Assembly (NCBI RefSeq): GCF_013377905.1
Contig: NZ_JABKAV010000008.1
Span: 1 to 64,000, forward strand
Direction of reading: 5' to 3'
Length of the DNA: 64,000 nucleotides
Source: Hymenobacter terrestris
Lineage (GTDB): Bacteria > Bacteroidota > Bacteroidia > Cytophagales > Hymenobacteraceae
The first letter of the stretch is position 1, and each line of letters starts with the position of its first letter. Below are positions 29,562 to 40,120 of this stretch, piece after piece. A program made the position numbers and the translations under genes. The notes below the pieces were generated by a model. The model was not told the origin of the DNA, searched no databases, and was given only the letters and a program-made list of their open reading frames with translations.

Positions 29562-32408
29562 ATGCTACTACCTCTACGTTGGTTTTGCTGCGCCGCGCTG
29601 CTGCTGGTCAGTACTGTTGCGGCTGTGGCCCAATCGGCAGCATCTAGCCGCACGGTGCGGCCGGGCGTGCTGGTTTTCCGGCTGAAAGCTGCCCCCACCG
29701 ACGCCACCCAGTCGCGCCGGCCGGGCCCGGCGGTGCTACCGGCGGCCCTCACAACTACTTTCCAGGCCCTTGGCGCCACGGCCCGGCCCAAATTCCCCCG
29801 GGCCGCCATGCCTACTGCGGCCCGCGCCCAGGCCGGAGCCGTGGATTTGGGCCTGCTTTATGAGCTGACGCTGCCCACCGGTACCTCGCCGGCGCAGATG
29901 CAGCAGCGGCTGCTTAAAACCGGCCTAGTGGAGTACGCCGAGCCACTCTACGACTACCAGCCCCTGCATCAACCCAACGACCCGCAAGCCGACTCGGTGG
30001 GCCCCGGGGGCCAGTATTACCTCCGAAATATCCGCGCCCATCAGGCCTGGAACCTCACGCAGGGCGATACGAGCATCGTCATCGGCATTGCGGATGGCGG
30101 CACCCGCTTCACCCACGAAGACCTGGCGGGTAAGAATCAGCTCAACCGCCTCGACCCCATCGATGGCATTGATAACGATGGCGACGGCTACATCGACAAC
30201 TATTACGGCTGGGATTTCGCTGACCACGACAACGACCCTGAACGCGCCCGCAACCCCACCGACATGGCCCACGGCGTGATGGTAACCGGCGTAGCCGCTG
30301 GGGCTACCAACAACGGCCGCGGTATTGCCAGCGTGGGCTACAAGTCGCGGTTCATGCCCCTGAAAATCTATCCTTCCACCCTTGAAGGCTCATTTGGCGG
30401 CTACGAGGCCATTGTATATGCCGCCGACCACGGCTGCCAGGTCATCAACCTGTCGTGGGGGGGCGCGGGGGCGCCCTCGCGCTTCGAGCAGGATGTTATC
30501 AGCTACGCTGCCCTCAACCACGATGTGGTAGTGGTGGCCGCCGCCGGCAACACGCCCCAGGACCTTGATTTCTACCCCGCCAGCTACCAGCACGTGGTGT
30601 CGGTGGCCTTGACTACCATCACCGACGAGCGAAGCCTGATTAGCACTTTCAGCTACCGGATTGATTTATCGGCCCCCGGCGAAGGCATTATCACAACGCT
30701 TGGCTTTACTGATACCGACTATGTCAAAACGGGCGGCTCGTCGTTTGCTTCGCCCCAGGTGGCGGGGGCAGCCGCGCTGGTACGCAGCCGGTTCCCACAA
30801 CTCAACGCCGCTCAGGTAGCCGCCCAAATTCGGCGCACCACCGATTTCATCGACGACCTGCCCGGCAATATACCTTACGCCGGCCGGCTGGGTTCGGGCC
30901 GGCTGAACGTGTTTCGGGCCGTGTCGGAGCAGCCTTATTCGGCCCGGGTGGTGGCCCGCACGGCCGCTCCTGCCCGCACGTTCTACCAGCCCGCCGACAC
31001 GTTGCGCCTTACAGTGCGGGTGCAGAACTTGCTACGGGAACTGCCGGGCCTTACCGTAACGCTCACCTCGCTTTCCCCTTACCTAATAGTGCGCCAGGGC
31101 GAATTCAGCACCGGCCCTTTGGCTAGCTTGGCAGAGGCCAACAACGCCGCCACGCCTTTCCGGCTGGCCGTGGCGGACGCAGGTGTGCCGCTTAATACCA
31201 AGGCCGTATTGCGCTACCGCCTCCACCACGAAGCCAGCGGCTACACCGAGTACCAGTATGAAACCCTGCTATTGAACGCAGACTATGTGGTGCTCGGTGC
31301 CAACAACCTCCGCTTCACGCTCACCAGCCGGGGCAACCTGGGCTACGACGGCACCAACCCTAGCCTCGGCGAGGGCATCAGCTACCGCCAGGGCCCACCA
31401 CTGCTGGCCGAAGGCGGGCTGCTATTGGCTACTTCGGCTACGCGCTTAGCCAGCAACGTGCGCAACGATAAGCGCGGCAACGACGCCGATTTTATAGCCG
31501 TTGCCCAGGTATACCGCCTACCCGCCGCCAGCGGGTCCATCAACCAACGGGCCGAAGGCCAGCTACGTGAGGTACAGCTACCGGCCACCAACCCACAGGC
31601 CGTAGGTGTAACCCTGCGCCAGCGGGCCACTGCCCGGGCCGCAGTTCCACACCAGAATTACGTGCTGCTCGAATACCAGCTCACCAACATTACCACCGAT
31701 ACGCTCCGGCCATTGCATCTGGGCCTGTTTATGGATTGGGACCTGCCCGACAACCCCGCTCGCAACGTCGCCAGCTGGGACGCTGCCCGCCACCTGGGCT
31801 ATGTGTACGATACGCCCGGCCAGACCATCTATGCCGGCGTGCAACACCTGGCCGGCGGCCAGCCCAGCATATTTAGCCTCAATAACAGTTCAAACATTCC
31901 CGCCGGGCCGGTGCGTCTGAATGACGGCTTCAGCCGGGCTGAGAAGTGGCTGACGCTGAGCAGCGGTACTGACAACCCCACTACCGGCTTGCCCGCCGGC
32001 GTCGATGCGGCCCAGGTAGTGGGCGCGGCTCTGCCCTACCTGGCCCCTTCCGACTCTATAACGGTATCCTTTGCGGTGCTTGCGGCAAATTCGCTGGCCG
32101 AGCTACAGGCCGCAGCCGATGCAGCCACAGCCAGTTACCAGCAGATTCCTACCACCTCGAGTCCACGTATGCTGGCCGGCGTGCGGCTCTACCCCAACCC
32201 TACCTCGGGCACTGTGCGCCTGGAACTACCCGCTGGCGACCCGGCCACAGTACGGGTACTGTCGGTGCTGGGACAGCAGCTGGCAGTTTACAGTTTTCGG
32301 GAGGGCACCGCTGCTCTCGACCTTTCGGCCTACCCGGCCGGCGTGTACCTGCTGCGGATAGAAACGGCGGCCGGAGTGGGCACCTACCGGGTGCTCAAGC
32401 GTCCGTAG
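29562..32408 (+). CDS. subtilisin-like serine protease with T9SS sorting domain
   Basis: A 948-residue secreted protease. The signal peptide ends near VAQS (25). A propeptide-like region precedes the S8 domain (about 160-440): Asp178 in GIADGGTR, His237 in DMAHGVMV, oxyanion Asn330 in AAAGNT and Ser394 in GGSSFASPQVAG. The Asp motif reads DGG instead of the usual DSG/DTG, and GSS replaces GTS; both are mild departures. A metal-rich DGIDNDGDGYIDN insert near 201-213 looks calcium-binding. A long beta-rich region is followed by a type A T9SS sorting domain (LYPNPTSGTV to YRVLKRP) at the C-terminus. It is probably displayed on or released from the surface. Confidence 0.92.
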   Translation: MLLPLRWFCCAALLLVSTVAAVAQSAASSRTVRPGVLVFRLKAAPTDATQSRRPGPAVLPAALTTTFQALGATARPKFPRAAMPTAARAQAGAVDLGLLYELTLPTGTSPAQMQQRLLKTGLVEYAEPLYDYQPLHQPNDPQADSVGPGGQYYLRNIRAHQAWNLTQGDTSIVIGIADGGTRFTHEDLAGKNQLNRLDPIDGIDNDGDGYIDNYYGWDFADHDNDPERARNPTDMAHGVMVTGVAAGATNNGRGIASVGYKSRFMPLKIYPSTLEGSFGGYEAIVYAADHGCQVINLSWGGAGAPSRFEQDVISYAALNHDVVVVAAAGNTPQDLDFYPASYQHVVSVALTTITDERSLISTFSYRIDLSAPGEGIITTLGFTDTDYVKTGGSSFASPQVAGAAALVRSRFPQLNAAQVAAQIRRTTDFIDDLPGNIPYAGRLGSGRLNVFRAVSEQPYSARVVARTAAPARTFYQPADTLRLTVRVQNLLRELPGLTVTLTSLSPYLIVRQGEFSTGPLASLAEANNAATPFRLAVADAGVPLNTKAVLRYRLHHEASGYTEYQYETLLLNADYVVLGANNLRFTLTSRGNLGYDGTNPSLGEGISYRQGPPLLAEGGLLLATSATRLASNVRNDKRGNDADFIAVAQVYRLPAASGSINQRAEGQLREVQLPATNPQAVGVTLRQRATARAAVPHQNYVLLEYQLTNITTDTLRPLHLGLFMDWDLPDNPARNVASWDAARHLGYVYDTPGQTIYAGVQHLAGGQPSIFSLNNSSNIPAGPVRLNDGFSRAEKWLTLSSGTDNPTTGLPAGVDAAQVVGAALPYLAPSDSITVSFAVLAANSLAELQAAADAATASYQQIPTTSSPRMLAGVRLYPNPTSGTVRLELPAGDPATVRVLSVLGQQLAVYSFREGTAALDLSAYPAGVYLLRIETAAGVGTYRVLKRP

Positions 32409-33246: not shown

Positions 33247-33942
33247 TTAATAGTGCCAGAACATGCCGAAGTCAAACGGCGTCCAGAGGGCGGCGCGCTG
33301 GCCGGCGGCTTTCAGGCCCCGGTTGGTCCAGCTGTTGCAGGTATCGAAGAGGTTGTAAGTGCCATTTGCGACGTAGAAAGCATCGTTCTGGCCGTAACTG
33401 TGGCCTTTAATCTGCTGGGGGCGGCCGCTGGCATCCAAATCGAACTTGGTTTCGATGAAGCGGACGAGCCGGGCGTATTCGGCCGGCGTGAGCGTGAGTA
33501 GCACACACTTGGGGCCCACTTCGGGTTGGTGGTGGAACGTGGTGTGCATGGCCGTGGTACCGAGCCAGAACATAGCCTTCAGGCCGGTGCTGAGCTCAAG
33601 TTCGGCCCAGGTGGGCGTATCGAGGTAGAAGCCCCGGTCGCCCCAGCCGAATCCCACAAAATACTGGCTGGTGTCGTTGGCGGGCGTATCGGCGTAGGAA
33701 ATGAACCGCGTCCAGTCCTGCTGGGCATTGCGCACGGGTAGCACTAGGTCGGTGTGCACGCCGTTGGAGAGCAGGTATACCTCCACGGCTTCGCTGGGAG
33801 CGGGCGTAGCCTTTTCGCCGGCCACCGGAACGGCCGACAGCACCACCGAAGCTGCTACATACAAAGCCACCAGCCCGATAATGCCGGCCCCGGTGTAGGC
33901 AACGGCGGCGGCTACTGGGTAAAGTGGGTTGGATTTTCTCAT
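33247..33942 (-). CDS. TIGR02117/DUF2459 family membrane-anchored protein
   Basis: A 231-residue protein with an N-terminal membrane segment (about 10-38). The rest matches the DUF2459 family: NGVHTDLVLP, a GWGDRGFYLDTP motif, AMFWLGTTAMHTTFHHQPEVG and a C-terminal CNSWTNRGLKAAG motif. These proteins are of unknown function; the conserved His, Asp and Cys residues look enzymatic. It lies 53 bases downstream of the MSEP-CTERM gene in the same orientation, so it may belong to the exosortase transcript, which would make it a candidate accessory factor. The operon link is inference. Confidence 0.82.
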   Translation of the reverse strand: MRKSNPLYPVAAAVAYTGAGIIGLVALYVAASVVLSAVPVAGEKATPAPSEAVEVYLLSNGVHTDLVLPVRNAQQDWTRFISYADTPANDTSQYFVGFGWGDRGFYLDTPTWAELELSTGLKAMFWLGTTAMHTTFHHQPEVGPKCVLLTLTPAEYARLVRFIETKFDLDASGRPQQIKGHSYGQNDAFYVANGTYNLFDTCNSWTNRGLKAAGQRAALWTPFDFGMFWHY

Positions 33943-33995
33943 AGAAAAGGGAAAAAGGGAGTCTGCCTATACGCGGCCGGCGGCAAAAAGTCAGC

Positions 33996-36881
33996 TTAGG
34001 CCGCCGCTGGTCCCAGTCGGCGGTGGCGCCACCAGCCCCGCCCGGCCAGCGCCGCCCCCAACAGGGCCAGCAACAGCCAGTTGCTGGGCTCCGACATTCG
34101 CTGGTCCTCCGCGGCTTCCAAAGCCGCGTGGCCGTTCAGCAACTCGGCTTGTTTGCGTCGCAGAGCAGCTTTTTGGGCATCGTTTTCGAGGGCCAGGTAG
34201 GCCGTGAGAGGGGTAAGCAGCCCGGTGCGGAAACTGGCTTCGACCAGTTGGTGACCGGCCGCTGCGCCCGTTTCGGGGTGGTGCAGCTGGTGGCGCCACT
34301 GGGCTTGCAACGCTACTCCCGAGCGCCAGTTGCGAGTAGCCAGAGTTGTTGGTTGCTTGGTGGAAACCGGCATATTACTCAGCACTAAATCGGGCTGGCC
34401 GTTGGCGGGTAGGTAGGTGGTGGCGTTTTTGGCGTAGGGCCAGGCTACTACGGGGCTGGCCGCAGCCGGGGCCGCCAAGGTGTCGAGCGGGGCAGCAGGG
34501 TCGCGCAGCAGCGAGTGGGCTACAAACCGGCCGTCGGGCCGCAGCTCGTAGAAAAGTGCCGATTCGGGGAAGGCATGGCGCAGGTCGGCGAAGTCAGTGG
34601 GGAGAATGGCCCGTTCAAAATCAGCCGACACCACTACCAGCACCGGGTAGCGCGGCACAGGCGTTTCGGCGGCCCGCACCAGCGTTTGCCGGATGGCCCG
34701 GTCGAGGTAGAAGCCGCCCTCGACGGGCATCCTGGTTTCACCGGGACTTACTTCTGGCCACCTAAGGGAGGTAGTGCGGCTGCCTACCAGGCTATACTTG
34801 GTGGTTTTTTCATCCAGCCCTGGTGACCGGACAGCCGTAGCCATCATGTCCCGATAGGTGCTCCAGGCCCCCTGCTGGCCGACCGAGTTATCTACCAGAA
34901 AATGATAGTATGGCTGCCGGCGCACCACTGGCAGCGCGGCTTTTTGAGCGGCACTCAGGTAAGTTGCGCCTGCGCTGAGCAAATTCACTTCGGCGGGCAG
35001 TGTGGCTCCGCGCCGGGCTTCTCCCAGCTGCACCAGCTGGCCATCGAGCTGTAGTGTGAGTGGCTCGGGATGCAGAAGCTCCAGGCCGGTACGGCGCACT
35101 TCGCCGGCTGCAAACGGAAACACGCGCAGCTCCAGTTCGTTGCCATACTTATAAGTCAGCAGGCCCGGGTCGCGGTTTTCGTTGCGAATCTGCCGATATA
35201 TCCAGGTAGCGGCCCGCTTCTCGGCCAAGATGCCGAACTCACGGCGGCCTTCCATATCGAGGTAGTAATTGCTCACAAAGCAGCCGGCCGGCAGCGTCAG
35301 TTGGGTGGTGTATTCGGCTATATCGGCGGAGTCGGGGTTGAGAATAGTAAGGTCGACCCAGCTGACCCAGGCCTGCTGCCGGGCGTCGTAGCGGCTGCGG
35401 GCCGCCAGCTTTGTGAGGCGCGGCAGGGACGGGGCGGTGGGCCCTGGCTGGCCATCTGCCTGCGTCAGATCGGCGGGAATCTCCGTTTCCGGCCGGGGTT
35501 GGTTGGCCGGTGTTGCCGCGAGAAACACCTCTTCCAGCAGTTCCAGCTTGCTTTCCGGCAGCGTCAGGTTGTCGAGCACCAGCCAGTTGTAGAACGACGA
35601 CAGGTAGGGCAGCCGGGCCCCAGTGATAGAAGTTCCCCGGTTGGTTTTGTGGTGGCGCACAGTGCCCAGCACGACACTTAGCGCGGCCGTATCAACAGTC
35701 GCCATTGGCTGAAAATACTCGGGCAGGTACACGTAATCGAGGGCCCGGTGCAGCGTGGCGCGGTGCCAGACGTACTGCCCGGCTACGGCCAGCGGCAGCA
35801 CGGCCCCGGCCGCCAGCAGCCCCATCAACAAACTGCGCCGCCCAAAGCGGGGCCGCAACCTAGCGTAGTCCTGGCTCAGCACCCGCACATGCACGATGAA
35901 CAGCACCAACGGCGCCAACAGCAAAAAGCCAGCTCCCAGCGCCGCCACGGCCACCACCGACAGCGGTAGAAAGGGCAAAAATACCAGGAAGAAATACAGC
36001 GTGTAACCAAACAACGCCGCTCGCCCCAGAAAAAGCACCAGCCGCGCATGGGAGCCCGCCGGATTGGGGCAAAGCAGCAGGGCGGCATTGAGCACCGCCA
36101 ACCCGTACCACCAAGGGCCGGAGAAGTCGCCGAATATGCCGCTTTCACTCCAGCCAGAGCCTCCCATACGCAAGTCGCCGTTGTTGATGGCCAGCCCCAG
36201 CAGCGGCAGCACTCCGGCTACCAGCAGCAGCCCAACCCAGCGGAAGGTCTTGGTAGCCGTCCGCTGCCGGGCCAGAATGTACACGCCCCGGCTCAGCGCC
36301 AGCAGAAACAGCAGCGTACCGGTAATCAGTAGCACCACCAGCACGTGCTGGGCCACCGGCCCCGAGCCGTAGTGCCACATGGGCATCACCAGTTGGGCAA
36401 ACAGGTACCAGACCGCCGGCACGGCCAGCGCGGCCCCGAAGTTGGGCAGGACTTTGAATTCGCGGTTTTCGGGTGTCAGGCACAACACCAGCACGGCCGC
36501 AGCGTGCGCCAGCGTGGGCATTAGGAAAGTGCCGGCGTAGAGTGGCAGGTCGGCGGGCACCATCCAGCGGGGCACGGCGGAAGGAAAAAGCTGCTGGAGT
36601 TGCGTTCCGTACACGTAGAGCCCCACGATGTAAATGCCCAACGCCCCTAGCGCGTAGCCGGTTGACAACTGCCGCCGCCGCGCCGCCAGCCACCTCGCAT
36701 AGGCCGCATGGACTACGGACAGCCCCAATAGCACTGCGCCCAGCCAATGCCAAGCCAGCCGGCTCGCCGGCTCCAGCAGGCTCTGGATTACGTTGTACTC
36801 GGCCCAAAAAAAGAGTAGCAGCAGCGCCACCGGCAGCGTGTTGAGCAGCCAGAGCCACCGCGGATTTAACAAGGTGCGCAT
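33996..36881 (-). CDS. MSEP-CTERM VIT-domain protein, substrate of the adjacent exosortase
   Basis: A 961-residue protein. The first ~380 residues are a membrane domain with about ten hydrophobic segments. Residues about 490-620 resemble a VIT domain: TLPAGCFVSNYYLDMEGRRE, GILAEKRAATWIYRQIRNENRDPGLL and LRVFPFAAGEVRRT. Residues about 650-830 look like a degenerate VWA region (FLVDNSVG near its start). The extreme C-terminus is MSEPSNW (Met929) followed by a hydrophobic segment and a basic cluster (WWRHRR), a textbook exosortase tripartite sorting signal. Its gene follows the exosortase gene by 84 bases. The protein is inferred to be cleaved and anchored by that exosortase. The fold assignments are by pattern only. 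Confidence 0.88.
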   Translation of the reverse strand: MRTLLNPRWLWLLNTLPVALLLLFFWAEYNVIQSLLEPASRLAWHWLGAVLLGLSVVHAAYARWLAARRRQLSTGYALGALGIYIVGLYVYGTQLQQLFPSAVPRWMVPADLPLYAGTFLMPTLAHAAAVLVLCLTPENREFKVLPNFGAALAVPAVWYLFAQLVMPMWHYGSGPVAQHVLVVLLITGTLLFLLALSRGVYILARQRTATKTFRWVGLLLVAGVLPLLGLAINNGDLRMGGSGWSESGIFGDFSGPWWYGLAVLNAALLLCPNPAGSHARLVLFLGRAALFGYTLYFFLVFLPFLPLSVVAVAALGAGFLLLAPLVLFIVHVRVLSQDYARLRPRFGRRSLLMGLLAAGAVLPLAVAGQYVWHRATLHRALDYVYLPEYFQPMATVDTAALSVVLGTVRHHKTNRGTSITGARLPYLSSFYNWLVLDNLTLPESKLELLEEVFLAATPANQPRPETEIPADLTQADGQPGPTAPSLPRLTKLAARSRYDARQQAWVSWVDLTILNPDSADIAEYTTQLTLPAGCFVSNYYLDMEGRREFGILAEKRAATWIYRQIRNENRDPGLLTYKYGNELELRVFPFAAGEVRRTGLELLHPEPLTLQLDGQLVQLGEARRGATLPAEVNLLSAGATYLSAAQKAALPVVRRQPYYHFLVDNSVGQQGAWSTYRDMMATAVRSPGLDEKTTKYSLVGSRTTSLRWPEVSPGETRMPVEGGFYLDRAIRQTLVRAAETPVPRYPVLVVVSADFERAILPTDFADLRHAFPESALFYELRPDGRFVAHSLLRDPAAPLDTLAAPAAASPVVAWPYAKNATTYLPANGQPDLVLSNMPVSTKQPTTLATRNWRSGVALQAQWRHQLHHPETGAAAGHQLVEASFRTGLLTPLTAYLALENDAQKAALRRKQAELLNGHAALEAAEDQRMSEPSNWLLLALLGAALAGRGWWRHRRLGPAAA

Positions 36882-36965
36882 AGAAGTAAGGTTTGGGTAC
36901 TTAGGATTTCGGGGACTTGGATGAGTTCGTGCAGCACGCTAAACCAACGCCGTGCTGGTTGGGCG

Positions 36966-37475
36966 CTAATAGCTAGCCTTTTTGAGCAGGAGGTGCCGCA
37001 GTGCGGCGTAGGCTGCTACCAGGAAAAACAGGTATACCAGTGCCCCCTGCGCCTCGTGCAGCCAGGCGGGGGCCAATGCTGGGGGCAGCAGCTGGCCCAG
37101 CCGCACGGCCCCGGCAATACGGGCCGCATTCACGAACAGCGTTAGGGGGTAGCTCAGCAGCAACAGGACCAACAGCGCCAGGCCCGGGCGCGGGCCACGC
37201 TGCCATAGGTATGTGGTCGTCAGCACCAGCCCGGTCAACAGTCCGAAGTTGCCGCCCGCGCACGATTTGTCGATGACGATGCTCAGGCCCGAATGCACGT
37301 AGCCCCGCCCCGCCACGAACTCAGAGGTCGAGCTAAGTAGCAGATTTACCAGCGCGTTGGTGGGGGCCAGCAGCCAGCGCACATCAGCGGTATCGGCCGC
37401 CGCGTAGCACAGCTTGGCAACCACGTAGGCTACCAGTAGCAGCAGATAAGGCAGAAAGCAGATGATGCGGCGCAT
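36966..37475 (-). CDS. xrtK: exosortase K-like (XrtK) transpeptidase
   Basis: A 169-residue polytopic membrane protein with about five hydrophobic segments. The exosortase triad is in order: Cys72 in KSCAGGNF, Arg119 in NAARIAG and His140 in LHEAQG. This small single-domain type matches exosortase K, which acts on MSEP-CTERM proteins; the adjacent gene ends in exactly MSEP. Exosortases cleave C-terminal sorting signals and hand the protein on to the envelope. It is the first gene of a minus-strand unit xrtK-MSEP-DUF2459 with a well-matched promoter upstream. The K subtype call depends on memory of the family. Confidence 0.85.
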   Translation of the reverse strand: MRRIICFLPYLLLLVAYVVAKLCYAAADTADVRWLLAPTNALVNLLLSSTSEFVAGRGYVHSGLSIVIDKSCAGGNFGLLTGLVLTTTYLWQRGPRPGLALLVLLLLSYPLTLFVNAARIAGAVRLGQLLPPALAPAWLHEAQGALVYLFFLVAAYAALRHLLLKKASY

Positions 37476-37500
37476 AGCGAGTGGATGAGTTCAGGCTACG

Positions 37501-37532
37501 CAAACATAAAACAAAGAACTTTGTAATTCAAA
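37501..37532 (-). promoter_or_regulatory. promoter of the exosortase operon
   Basis: On the minus strand TTTG (37529-37532), 20 bases, then TATGTTTG (37501-37508) match the Bacteroidetes consensus. Transcription would start near 37495, about 20 bases before the ATG. Confidence 0.65.
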
Positions 37533-37766
37533 GTTTATTAACAAAAGAGTCTGTTTATAGTGCATCAGTCCCACTGCTGTATGCTCTCCAGCGCTTAGGA
37601 GCGCATTCTTTCATTGCTATCATCTTCACTCCTGATTGTCGTCAATACACTCATTGTTGCTATGTCTGCTGTCGTTGGCGTTCTGGCTCTTGGGCCCTTT
37701 ACTGTGCCTTGACATTAAGCTTATTACACTAAATGTGCGCACTATAGCACCAGACCTTGCAAACGC
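37533..37766. other. gene-free stretch upstream of the exosortase operon
   Basis: About 230 bases of moderately AT-rich sequence between the operon promoter and the aconitase terminator. I see no reading frame with signs of coding, no tRNA fold and no clear repeat in it. Confidence 0.5.
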
Positions 37767-37822: not shown

Positions 37823-40120
37823 CTAGATGCGCTCCGAAAGCTGCGCGTCGCCGCTCTGCATCTGCCGGATAAGGTTCAGGGCCGAGCCGGCCTTAAACCA
37901 GGCAATCTGGCCCTCGTTGTAGGTGTGGTTCACCGTGATGAGGTCCGTGTCGCCGTCGGCGTGGTGCAGGCGCACCTGCAGGGGCTTGCCGGGAGCAAAC
38001 TCGGTCAGGCCGAGGATGTCGATGGTATCGTCCTCCTCAATCAGGTCGTAGTCGGCCTTGTTGTCGAAGGTAAGGCCCAACATGCCCTGCTTTTTGAGGT
38101 TGGTTTCGTGAATCCGGGCGAAGGATTTCACCAGCACGGCGCGCACGCCGAGGTGGCGGGGCTCCATGGCGGCGTGCTCACGCGAGCTGCCTTCACCGTA
38201 ATTCTCATCGCCAATAACCACCGAGCCGATGCCCTGGGCTTTGTAGTTACGGGCTACCGTAGGCACGGGCGAGTAGGGAGTACCCTGCGTGAGGGCATCC
38301 TTTACCGAGTTGGTTTGCTCATTGAAGGCGTTGGTAGCCCCGATGAGCATGTTGTTGGAGATGTTATCGAGGTGGCCGCGGTACTTCAACCACGGACCGG
38401 CCATCGAAATATGGTCGGTAGTGCACTTGCCTTTGGCCTTGATGAGCAGGCGCAGACCCAGCAGGTCGGTGCCATTCCAGGGCTTAAAGGGCTCCAACAG
38501 CTGCAGGCGGTCCGATTCAGACGACACCATTACGTTCACGCCCGAGCCATCGGCGGCGGGCTGCTGATAGCCGGCATCCTCCACGGCGAAGCCACGGGGC
38601 GGCATCTCGATACCTACAGGCTCGTCAAACTTCACCTGCTCGCCGGCGCTGGTAGTCAGCGTATCGGTGAGCGGGTTGAAGGTCAGGTCGCCGGCAATGG
38701 CAAAGGCCGTCACGATTTCGGGCGAGGCCACAAACGCGTGGGTGTTGGGATTGCCGTCGTTGCGCTTGGCGAAGTTGCGGTTGAAGCTTGTGATAATCGA
38801 GTTACGGCGCTTGGGGTCGTCGGTGTGGCGGGCCCACTGGCCGATGCACGGACCGCAGGCGTTGGCCAGCACCACGCCGCCCATTTGGGCAAACGTATCG
38901 AGCAGACCGTCGCGCTCCACGGTGTAGCGCACCAGCTCCGAACCAGGCGTTACCGTGTACTCGGCCTGCACGGTCAGGCCCTTATCAGCAGCCTGCTTGG
39001 CAATGGAGGCGGCGCGTGTAATGTCTTCGTAGCTCGAGTTGGTGCACGAACCAATCAGGCCTACTTCCAGCTTTGCGGGCCAGCCATGCTCGCGTACGGC
39101 CGAGGCAAACTCCGAAATCGGCCACGCGGCGTCCGGCGTAAACGGACCGTTCACGTAGGGCTCCAGCGTATTCAGGTCGATTTCGATGAGCTGGTCGTAG
39201 AAATTCTCTGGATTGGCGTACACCTCGTCGTCGGCGCGCAGGTGCGCGGCCACGCCGGCGGCCAGCTCGGCCACTTCGGCCCGGCCGGTGCCGCGCAGGT
39301 AAACGGCCATCTTCTCATCGAAGCTGAATACCGAGGTAGTAGCCCCAATTTCGGCGCCCATATTGCAAATGGTGCCTTTACCGGTTGCCGACAGGTTCTC
39401 GGCGCCTTCGCCGAAGTACTCTACAATAGCACCAGTGCCGCCTTTCACGGTCAGGATGCCGGCTACTTTCAGAATCACGTCTTTGGCCGACGTCCAGCCC
39501 GAGAGCTTACCGGTCAGCTTCACGCCGATTACTTTGGGGAACTTCAGCTCCCAGGCCATGCCAGCCATTACGTCCACGGCATCGGCGCCGCCTACGCCAA
39601 TGGCAATCATGCCCAGGCCACCCGCGTTGGGGGTGTGCGAGTCGGTGCCGATCATCATGCCGCCGGGGAAGGCGTAGTTTTCGAGCACTACCTGGTGAAT
39701 AATGCCAGCGCCGGGCTTCCAGAAGCCAAGGCCGTACTTGTTCGAAACTGAAGCTAGGAAGTCGTACACCTCCTTGTTCTCGGAGTTGGCAGTGGCCAAA
39801 TCGGCATCAGCGCCTACTTTAGCCTGAATCAGGTGGTCGCAATGCACAGTGCTGGGCACGGCGGCCGTAGCCTTGCCGGCCTGCATGAACTGCAACAGCG
39901 CCATCTGGGCGGTGGCATCCTGCATGGCTACGCGGTCGGGCGCAAAATCGACGTAGGAAACGCCCCGCTCATACGCCTGCGAAACGGTACCGCCGTGTAG
40001 GTGGGCGTACAGAATTTTTTCCGTCAGGGTGAGCGGACGGCCGACCGCTGACCGGGCCGCCTCGATGCGGGTGCCCATGCCAGCGTACACGGCCTTAATC
40101 ATCTCTAAATCGAATGCCAT
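37823..40120 (-). CDS. acn: aconitate hydratase
   Basis: A 765-residue aconitase of the mitochondrial type. The Fe-S ligands are visible as SCTNSS near residue 357 and ACGPCIGQW near residue 420, with HCDHLI near residue 95, [11 protein letters not shown] near 165 and [15 protein letters not shown] near 645 (the swivelling C-terminal domain). It interconverts citrate and isocitrate in the TCA cycle. The family's usual length is ~750-780. The promoter (TTG-N19-TATATTTG) and terminator flank it, so it is monocistronic. Confidence 0.97.

What the first reader, a model, noticed from the sequence alone, without database searches (positions are those of the whole stretch)
33247..37532. Single-substrate exosortase unit: XrtK-like enzyme, MSEP-CTERM VIT protein and DUF2459 protein
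The 169-residue exosortase has the Cys72/Arg119/His140 triad; 84 bases later a 961-residue polytopic VIT-domain protein ends MSEPSNW + hydrophobic segment + basic cluster, the sorting signal; 53 bases further on is a DUF2459 protein. A TTTG-N20-TATGTTTG promoter precedes the unit. A dedicated exosortase for one VIT-domain substrate is a described but poorly understood arrangement; a linked DUF2459 partner would extend it. T9SS cargo genes nearby mean two envelope sorting routes coexist.
Basis: partly seen in the sequence, partly recalled or inferred. Interest (0 to 1): 0.8.

Follow-up and report, generated by a model that had tools for sequence, protein, structure and literature searches.

The report
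Exosortase and its swappable-tail membrane substrate
A small membrane enzyme sits beside the one large envelope protein it probably trims; relatives that lost the enzyme changed that protein's tail to the type used by a different enzyme, and the neighbouring third gene turns out to be a bystander.

Summary
The genes and promoter are as described. xrtK (TIGR04287, 110 bits, cut-off 55) and the MSEP-CTERM VIT protein (TIGR04286, 808 bits, cut-off 150) are an already-named NCBIfam pair; Cys72/Arg119/His140 are invariant in 78 of 78 XrtK rows. The DUF2459 link fails: DUF2459 is in 119 of 120 genomes of the genus, stands at the same site without xrtK/VIT, and is beside none of 57 unit loci outside Hymenobacter.

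Two results go beyond the finding. (1) The substrate's sorting signal changes with the exosortase. In the genus, 15 of 15 VIT proteins beside xrtK end in M[ST]EP; 25 of 25 readable tails in xrtK-less genomes end in P[ILV]D (PID_CTERM model matches 21 of 25, against 0 of 15), and 24 of those 25 genomes carry exosortase XrtX. The tree shows one switch. (2) The promoter contains a palindrome, CTTTG-N5-CAAAG-NN-CTTT, found (up to one mismatch) at 40 of 40 genus units, 17 of 57 loci elsewhere, and before HTH_34, DUF4153 and small membrane-protein genes: a candidate regulon. The VIT ectodomain resembles inter-alpha-inhibitor heavy chain (Z 10.2). Cleavage, acceptor and regulator are untested.

The parts
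36966..37475 (-). xrtK: exosortase K, 169 aa; Cys72, Arg119, His140
   Evidence: TIGR04287 110.4 bits, cut-off 55; PF09721 33.2 bits, cut-off 25.7; catalytic residues invariant in 78 of 78 rows
33996..36881 (-). VIT protein (MSEP-CTERM family), 961 aa: polytopic N-terminal half, VIT plus vWA-like ectodomain about 481-904, C-terminal sorting signal
   Evidence: TIGR04286 808 bits, cut-off 150; AlphaFold2 model mean pLDDT 84.1; best PDB match inter-alpha-inhibitor heavy chain 1, VIA Z 10.2 over 310 residues, rmsd 10.4
34086..34097 (-). MSEP motif, residues 929-932: start of the tripartite sorting signal (helix and basic cluster follow in 33999-34085)
   Evidence: sequence; residue position; MSEP in 56 and a close variant in 7 of 63 non-PID tails; pLDDT under 50 at 926-932, so a flexible linker in the model
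37501..37533 (-). promoter plus palindromic operator: CTTTG-AATTA-CAAAG-TT-CTTT (37513-37533) overlapping the -33 element, then TATGTTTG
   Evidence: operator, up to one mismatch, in 15 of 15 xrtK loci and 25 of 25 PID-tailed VIT loci of the genus
33247..33942 (-). DUF2459 / TIGR02117 protein: neighbour, judged not part of the unit
   Evidence: PF09601 203.7 bits; core gene 119 of 120; same site without xrtK/VIT
37823..40120 (-). long ORF (765 aa, aconitase-like by reading; not model-tested): flanking core gene that marks the site
   Evidence: homologue at 86-98% identity near DUF2459 in genomes with and without the unit
29562..32408 (+). subtilase with T9SS tail: flanking gene
   Evidence: PF00082 and TIGR04183 over cut-offs; homologue on the other side of DUF2459 in many genus loci

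Best explanation
xrtK and the VIT protein form a two-gene processing unit. The VIT protein is inserted in the inner membrane with its VIT/vWA-like domain in the periplasm (inferred). XrtK, a Cys-Arg-His membrane cysteine protease or transpeptidase, cuts at or next to the MSEP motif, discards the C-terminal helix and probably passes the new C-terminus to a lipid or glycan acceptor (inferred from archaeosortase A; acceptor unknown). The signal is a modular part matched to the enzyme present: in a Hymenobacter clade that lost xrtK the same protein carries a PID-CTERM signal, presumably handed to XrtX (sequence swap shown; processing by XrtX inferred). The unit is transcribed from a Bacteroidota-type promoter whose -33 region lies in a palindromic operator shared with HTH_34, DUF4153/CreD and small membrane-protein genes, so it is probably one output of an envelope-related regulon controlled by the HTH_34 regulator (shared operator shown; binding inferred). 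DUF2459 is a bystander.
For: Models and catalytic residues. VIT gene next to xrtK in 17 of 17 fetched loci besides the window and in 60 of 63 non-PID-tailed loci of a named scan; of the other 3, one is cut by a contig end and two have xrtK elsewhere in the genome. In a further check, 7 of 8 Cytophagales genomes with MSEP/SSEP/ASEP tails and no adjacent xrtK have it elsewhere. Tails: 15 of 15 M[ST]EP with xrtK against 25 of 25 P[ILV]D without; PID_CTERM model 21 of 25 against 0 of 15. XrtX in 25 of 26 xrtK-less genomes with a VIT gene (one of these a fragment), 4 of 15 xrtK genomes, 54 of 79 without VIT. PID_CTERM over cut-off in 9 of 9 XrtX genomes and 0 of 5 XrtK-only genomes, among 14 chosen. 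Operator. Fold.
Against: The signal switch is a single event on the tree (1 change, SH-aLRT 90, quick method with long-branch warnings), so the 25 genomes are not independent, and XrtX is already common in the genus (54 of 79 genomes without VIT). Four of 25 P[ILV]D tails do not match the PID_CTERM model at E 0.01, and the three scanned singly score under its cut-off (21.0, 25.1, 25.9 against 26). Thermoflexibacter ruber has xrtK but a degenerate MSEW tail. One 84%-complete genome with an SSEP tail shows no xrtK. Outside Hymenobacter the operator is in only 17 of 57 unit loci; 40 show none. 13 of 57 operator regions of the genus hold none of the regulon families (4 of the 13 share one further family). 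Nothing here shows cleavage, acceptor or DNA binding.
Confidence: 0.75

Rival explanations
1. DUF2459, a papain-like Cys-His protein, is a third component that acts on the processed VIT protein or its acceptor.
For: Next gene, 53 bases on, same strand, in a four-species clade; also directly after VIT in some xrtK-less genomes (L161, L181); conserved His63 and Cys202 fit the published papain-like assignment (PMC10318531, passages).
Against: In 119 of 120 genus genomes while xrtK is in 15 and VIT in 41; 17 of 20 fetched DUF2459 loci of xrtK-less genomes have no VIT gene in the stretch; 0 of 57 unit loci outside Hymenobacter; no exact operator core in those 17 loci, 280 kb.
Confidence: 0.07
2. 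The C-terminal helix is only a membrane anchor; neither XrtK nor XrtX cuts the VIT protein, and tail differences are drift after xrtK loss.
For: The protein is polytopic and needs no further anchor or sorting; no processing data exist; only one switch on the tree.
Against: MSEP in 56 of 63 non-PID tails and close variants in the other 7, with xrtK in the genome in every one checked except cut or incomplete records; xrtK-less tails did not decay but share one defined signal with small PID-CTERM proteins of XrtX genomes.
Confidence: 0.15
3. The tail swap is real but the PID-tailed VIT protein is handled by another protease, not XrtX.
For: One PID-tailed genome (G389, 90% complete, about 600 contigs) has no XrtX hit; XrtX is not adjacent to VIT.
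Against: 24 of 25 genomes with a readable PID tail have XrtX; PID-CTERM proteins sit beside xrtX in several genomes and none is over cut-off in 5 of 5 scanned XrtX-less genomes.
Confidence: 0.2
4. The palindrome is bound by some other regulator, or is a structural promoter element, so the shared motif is not an HTH_34 regulon.
For: No binding data; HTH_34 linkage is by gene order and position only; absent from 40 of 57 unit loci outside Hymenobacter; 13 of 57 operator regions hold none of the regulon families.
Against: Sites flank the membrane protein/HTH_34 gene pair in Hymenobacter and in other families of the phylum; all 14 non-Hymenobacter loci with that cluster have the site; the palindrome is symmetric, as a dimeric winged-helix protein would need.
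Confidence: 0.3

Closest known systems
NCBIfam exosortase K (TIGR04287) with MSEP-CTERM protein (TIGR04286)
   Same: Both proteins far over cut-off; adjacent genes; catalytic residues kept
   Different: The TIGR04286 model also takes in 25 of 25 PID-tailed homologues, which lack the motif it is named after; DUF2459 is not part of it
VIT/vault-type proteins with interchangeable GlyGly-CTERM, LPXTG or PEP-CTERM tails (Haft and Varghese 2011, PMC3237569; passages, section 12 read)
   Same: One VIT/vWA protein family carrying different sorting signals matched to different sorting enzymes; the term 'dedicated system'
   Different: There the exchange is among homologues of different bacteria and between unrelated enzyme families; here it is within one genus between two exosortases, with the xrtK-less state, promoter and phylogeny resolved
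XrtN with its VIT-domain protein (TIGR04476/TIGR04477)
   Same: Polytopic VIT protein next to an exosortase; about 417 residues match TIGR04286 below cut-off (92 and 94 bits against 150)
   Different: XrtN is 428-432 aa, tail is IPEPHEW/VPEPHEW
XrtX with PID-CTERM proteins (NF046081, NF046080)
   Same: PID-tailed VIT proteins match the signal model; XrtX present in the genome
   Different: The 14 other PID-CTERM proteins read here are tiny secreted-looking proteins, not polytopic
Inter-alpha-inhibitor heavy chains (vertebrate plasma)
   Same: VIT plus vWA ectodomain, Foldseek E 1e-8, VIA Z 10.2; recalled, from no call: heavy chains are also cut near the C-terminus and covalently joined to a glycan
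   Different: No membrane part; no exosortase; rmsd 10.4 over 310 residues, so domain arrangement differs; Z only about 1 above single vWA domains (9.1)

Membership tests
Exosortase K (XrtK) | Score over curated TIGR04287 cut-off | tested here: met
   110.4 bits against 55
Exosortase K (XrtK) | Cys, Arg, His catalytic residues of exosortases | tested here: met
   C72, R119, H140 in 78 of 78 rows, 70 distinct
Exosortase K (XrtK) | Encoded with an MSEP-CTERM protein | tested here: met
   Adjacent in the window, in 17 of 17 fetched loci and in 60 of 63 loci of the named scan
Exosortase K (XrtK) | Protease/transpeptidase activity on the MSEP signal | not testable with these tools
   No biochemical data
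MSEP-CTERM VIT protein | Score over TIGR04286 cut-off and motif, helix, basic cluster at the C-terminus | tested here: met
   808 bits against 150; MSEP at 929-932 then helix 934-960
Dedicated (single-target) exosortase system | Only one protein in the genome with the signal | tested here: inconclusive
   One TIGR04286 protein in G000 but no genome-wide search for other MSEP tails
DUF2459 as component of the XrtK system | DUF2459 recurs beside xrtK in other lineages | tested here: not met
   0 of 57 loci outside Hymenobacter; 10 of 15 within about 8 kb in the genus, where it is a core gene
PID-CTERM signal (for xrtK-less homologues) | Match to NF046080 | tested here: met
   21 of 25 at E 0.01 against 0 of 15 controls; over cut-off in 5 of 6 in whole-genome scans, but under it in 3 of 3 single-protein scans
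HTH_34 regulon | Regulator binds the operator | not testable with these tools
   Only shared sites and gene order

The most novel reading that the evidence does not exclude
The sorting signal of one and the same VIT membrane protein is an exchangeable cartridge: when a lineage lost its dedicated exosortase XrtK, the protein took over the signal of a second exosortase, XrtX, and kept its promoter. The processed VIT protein is the output of an undescribed envelope regulon in Bacteroidota, run by an HTH_34 repressor on a CTTTG-N5-CAAAG operator with DUF4153, CreD and small membrane proteins as fellow members, and its C-terminus is covalently joined to an envelope lipid or glycan in the manner of inter-alpha-inhibitor heavy chains.
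Probability: 0.4. Interest if true: 0.8.

Novelty: new variant of a known kind. Interest (0 to 1): 0.6.

Why it matters
Exosortase-signal pairs in Bacteroidota rest, as far as I could read, on co-occurrence. A natural swap of the signal on one orthologous protein, in cultured species of one genus, makes enzyme-signal pairing directly testable by exchanging tails and enzymes. The shared operator gives the unit a regulatory context and links it with CreD and DUF4153, which points to an envelope role for a protein family of unknown function. It also shows that NCBIfam TIGR04286 names proteins after a motif that a whole clade does not have.

Tried and rejected
DUF2459 as partner: rejected as above. 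I did not fold DUF2459; its papain-like assignment is taken from passages of PMC10318531, and alignment A3 only shows conserved His63 and Cys202.

xrtK loss with simple decay of the tail: rejected, since the xrtK-less tails share a defined signal.

Independent repeated switches: looked for among 390 genomes of the order (38 with TIGR04286; the non-genus tails that I read are MSEP-like or of the XrtN type) and in the named scan (15 of 78 PID-tailed, all Hymenobacter). None found outside Hymenobacter, so one switch only. The tail of G584, split over two matches, was not read.

Promoter-like string as chance: rejected. A second operator-like class, CCTTGCGTTGCATAGTACCTT, was set aside: it precedes PadR and PspC genes in the two regions read.

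Rows dropped or qualified before counts: L135 and L141 had no full VIT ORF and were left out of the 78; L182 counts among the 78 although its ORF is only 641 aa. L077 (G341) is a VIT fragment and was left out of the 25 tails; L070 (G308) is counted among the 25 for its tail, but its reading frame is broken near the N-terminus. L077, L182 and rows identical to others were left out of the tree. Some Hymenobacter loci occur twice (genus set and named scan), so the 56 hits, the 80 strict hits and the 78 XrtK rows are not all independent. The 57 operator regions hold every exact-core site in the visible rows (G296-G338) that is not before xrtK or VIT, plus one with a mismatch (L310); the list was cut there, the rows of the window's own genome were not shown, and L270 and L271 (PadR class) were read apart. 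For these 57 the tally says that the region holds the family; direct position was read for L253-L269.

Literature: searches. No held paper has MSEP-CTERM, PID-CTERM or 'exosortase K', and the XrtX hits are unrelated papers. None of the 13 papers listed has XrtK, and none of the 20 listed of 2,312 has DUF4153, which is no exhaustive search for it. Haft, Payne and Selengut 2012 is not held. One search was a script that found no input. Searches gave nothing of use.
Full report
What is there. On the minus strand of the window lie xrtK (36966-37475), the VIT protein gene (33996-36881) and a DUF2459 gene (33247-33942), with gaps of 84 and 53 bases. The first two are an enzyme-substrate pair already named by NCBIfam: exosort_XrtK 110.4 bits (cut-off 55) and MSEP-CTERM 808 bits (cut-off 150). 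Cys72, Arg119 and His140 are invariant in 78 of 78 aligned XrtK rows, 70 of them distinct.

How common it is. XrtK over cut-off: 4 of 296 genomes drawn from the phylum and 15 of 120 of the genus, the window's own included in both. The VIT family: 41 of 120 of the genus and 38 of 390 genomes drawn from the order. The VIT gene is beside xrtK in 17 of 17 fetched loci besides the window. A scan of named genomes with patterns outside the tail gave 80 loci, the best 80 of 115, 78 with a VIT ORF that reaches the C-terminus; 63 have MSEP-like tails (56 MSEP, 4 MTEP, 1 MAEP, 1 MPEP, 1 MSEW) and 60 of these 63 have xrtK beside them. Of the 3 others, L127 is cut by a contig end, and L184 and L185 have xrtK elsewhere. 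The commonest spacing is a 17-base overlap of the two genes (34 of 60). In the order, 7 of 8 genomes with MSEP, SSEP or ASEP tails and no adjacent xrtK carry it elsewhere; the miss, G546, is 84% complete.

DUF2459 is a bystander. PF09601 is in 119 of 120 genomes of the genus, often with a second, weaker paralogue. It is the next gene, under 100 bases away, in 4 of 15 xrtK loci (window, L026, L029, L034), which form one clade in the VIT tree, and within about 8 kb in 10 of 15. I fetched 20 loci around the stronger paralogue in xrtK-less genomes: 17 have no VIT gene in the stretch, and in 9 of those 17, all genomes without any VIT gene, DUF2459 still lies within 8 kb of the aconitase-like gene that flanks the unit in the window. 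Of the 57 unit loci outside Hymenobacter, none has DUF2459 in the stretch held; 18 of the 57 hold under 3 kb on one side. So xrtK-VIT is a variable pair at a conserved site.

The sorting signal changes with the enzyme. All 15 VIT proteins of xrtK-bearing genus genomes end in M[ST]EP, helix, basic cluster. Of the 26 xrtK-less genus genomes with a VIT gene, 25 have a readable tail, and all 25 end instead in P[ILV]D, helix, basic cluster; the 26th, G341, is a fragment, and one of the 25, G308, has a frame broken near its N-terminus. The proteins stay alignable up to a conserved ALD-x-x-E, and only the tail differs. NCBIfam's PID_CTERM model matches 21 of the 25 and 0 of the 15 at E 0.01. In whole-genome scans of 14 chosen genomes it is over cut-off in 9 of 9 with XrtX and 0 of 5 with XrtK alone, and it finds the VIT tails themselves over cut-off in 5 of 6 PID-tailed genomes (44.7 to 26.4 bits; the sixth 25.0 against 26); three of these proteins scanned singly stay just under it. 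The other exosortase is XrtX in 8 of 8 scanned. XrtX is in 25 of the 26 xrtK-less VIT genomes, 4 of 15 xrtK genomes and 54 of 79 without VIT (Fisher p 4.6e-6 for the first two, 0.003 for each against the third, none corrected for kinship). Of the four genomes with both enzymes three were scanned (G313, G335, G343): in each the one PID-CTERM protein over cut-off lies beside xrtX, while VIT keeps M[ST]EP. A tree of the VIT body without the tail (100 rows, quick method, with long-branch warnings) needs one change: the PID clade lies inside Hymenobacter MSEP lineages (SH-aLRT 90). I read MSEP with XrtK as ancestral, and one switch as kept in all descendants sampled. That VIT families exchange sorting signals is an existing theme: Haft and Varghese 2011 (PMC3237569, section 12) show vault-type homologues with GlyGly-CTERM, LPXTG or PEP-CTERM. 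XrtN-type VIT proteins, with IPEPHEW or VPEPHEW tails, are a further relative.

A shared operator. A pattern of operator (up to 2 substitutions) plus TANNTTTG has 56 hits in 1.79 Mb of loci (some genomes twice), 55 with xrtK or a PID-tailed VIT ORF next and one, L070, at the broken start of its VIT gene; one mononucleotide shuffle of the loci gave 0. The operator core alone is in 15 of 15 xrtK loci (14 exact, L024 with one mismatch) and 25 of 25 PID-tailed loci (20 exact, 5 with one mismatch), and is absent from 17 DUF2459 loci without VIT (280 kb, exact core). Outside Hymenobacter the same palindrome is in 17 of 57 unit loci (16 exact); 40 show none. The 17 are the 14 loci that hold a cluster of a 200-236 aa membrane protein, an HTH_34 gene (PF13601) and, in 13 of the 14, CreD or DUF4153, plus L147, L149 and L150, where the site is directly before xrtK. 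In the cluster the sites lie before the membrane protein gene, after the HTH_34 gene, and in some before xrtK. At up to two substitutions there were 50 hits in these 57 loci, 40 intergenic and 10 poor ones inside ORFs. In Hymenobacter genomes these genes are dispersed but keep the site: one search gave hits in 106 of 120 genomes (reversed-pattern control 0 or 1 per genome). Of 57 fetched regions with the operator that are not before xrtK or VIT, 28 hold a small membrane protein of about 186 aa, 16 the HTH_34/membrane protein/DUF4153 group, and 13 neither, 4 of these sharing one further family. I infer that the HTH_34 protein binds the palindrome and represses by covering the -33 element.

Structure and mechanism. 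The AlphaFold2 model of the VIT protein (mean pLDDT 84.1, pTM 0.83) has a polytopic N-terminal half, a VIT plus vWA-like domain and a C-terminal helix after a flexible linker that holds MSEP. The best solved match is inter-alpha-inhibitor heavy chain 1 (Foldseek E 1e-8; VIA Z 10.2, 310 residues, rmsd 10.4). It spans both domains (481-904), whereas the following rows, Z 9.1 and below, cover the vWA part alone; the lead in Z is small. The sequence profile itself finds only one weak match, inter-alpha-trypsin inhibitor heavy chain H4, E 0.27. For archaeosortase A a model that its authors call speculative has a thioester with the substrate passed to an amino lipid (figure legend in PMC7157517, passage). 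By analogy XrtK cuts at MSEP and transfers the C-terminus to an acceptor. Cut site, acceptor and role are not shown by anything here. Flavobacterium xrtF was found needed for surface colonisation (PMC10936215, passages), the only exosortase phenotype in the phylum that I read.

Verdict. The observed pair is known to annotation pipelines; the proposed DUF2459 extension is not supported. The enzyme-matched tail swap and the shared operator are new as far as the searches named under Tried and rejected can tell.

Noticed in passing
L195-L208 (XrtX-bearing genomes): Small PID-CTERM proteins: signal-peptide-like start, a short stretch, often Gly/Pro-rich (GPGSGGPEP...), then a P[ILV]DGG..LLLA.G helix and a basic end; in six of the nine scanned XrtX genomes one lies right beside xrtX (G313, G316, G331, G335, G343, G380).
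   Followed up: partly
L270:215, L271:293: A related palindrome CCTTGCGTTGCATAGTACCTT-N4-TANNTTTG recurs in many genomes of the genus; in the two regions read it precedes a PadR-type regulator gene and a large PspC/DUF2807 protein (Pfam run on L270 only).
   Followed up: partly
L274, L284, L288, L309: Operator sites before one further gene family (proteins beginning ...FVAP.S.VR..W..ADT..FIFAGA), not identified by a model here.
   Followed up: no
L275, L276, L277, L272 (G301): One genome without VIT has several exact operator sites before genes of none of the regulon families.
   Followed up: no
L122, L133, L136, L145: xrtK-VIT in MAGs labelled Elusimicrobia, Fibrimonadales, Spirochaetia and Leptospiraceae that branch among Bacteroidota: transfer or binning error.
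   Followed up: no
L102:1731-2804: A 357-aa protein that joins XrtX with an XrtX-associated membrane protein domain (65.9 bits, under the cut-off of 75).
   Followed up: no
L235-L240: A Cytophagales group has SSEP or ASEP instead of MSEP, with xrtK unlinked where found.
   Followed up: partly
L185 (Thermoflexibacter ruber): VIT tail reads MSEW and has a weak basic end although xrtK is elsewhere in the genome.
   Followed up: no
L077 (G341), L070 (G308): VIT genes with broken frames in genomes with XrtX but no xrtK.
   Followed up: no
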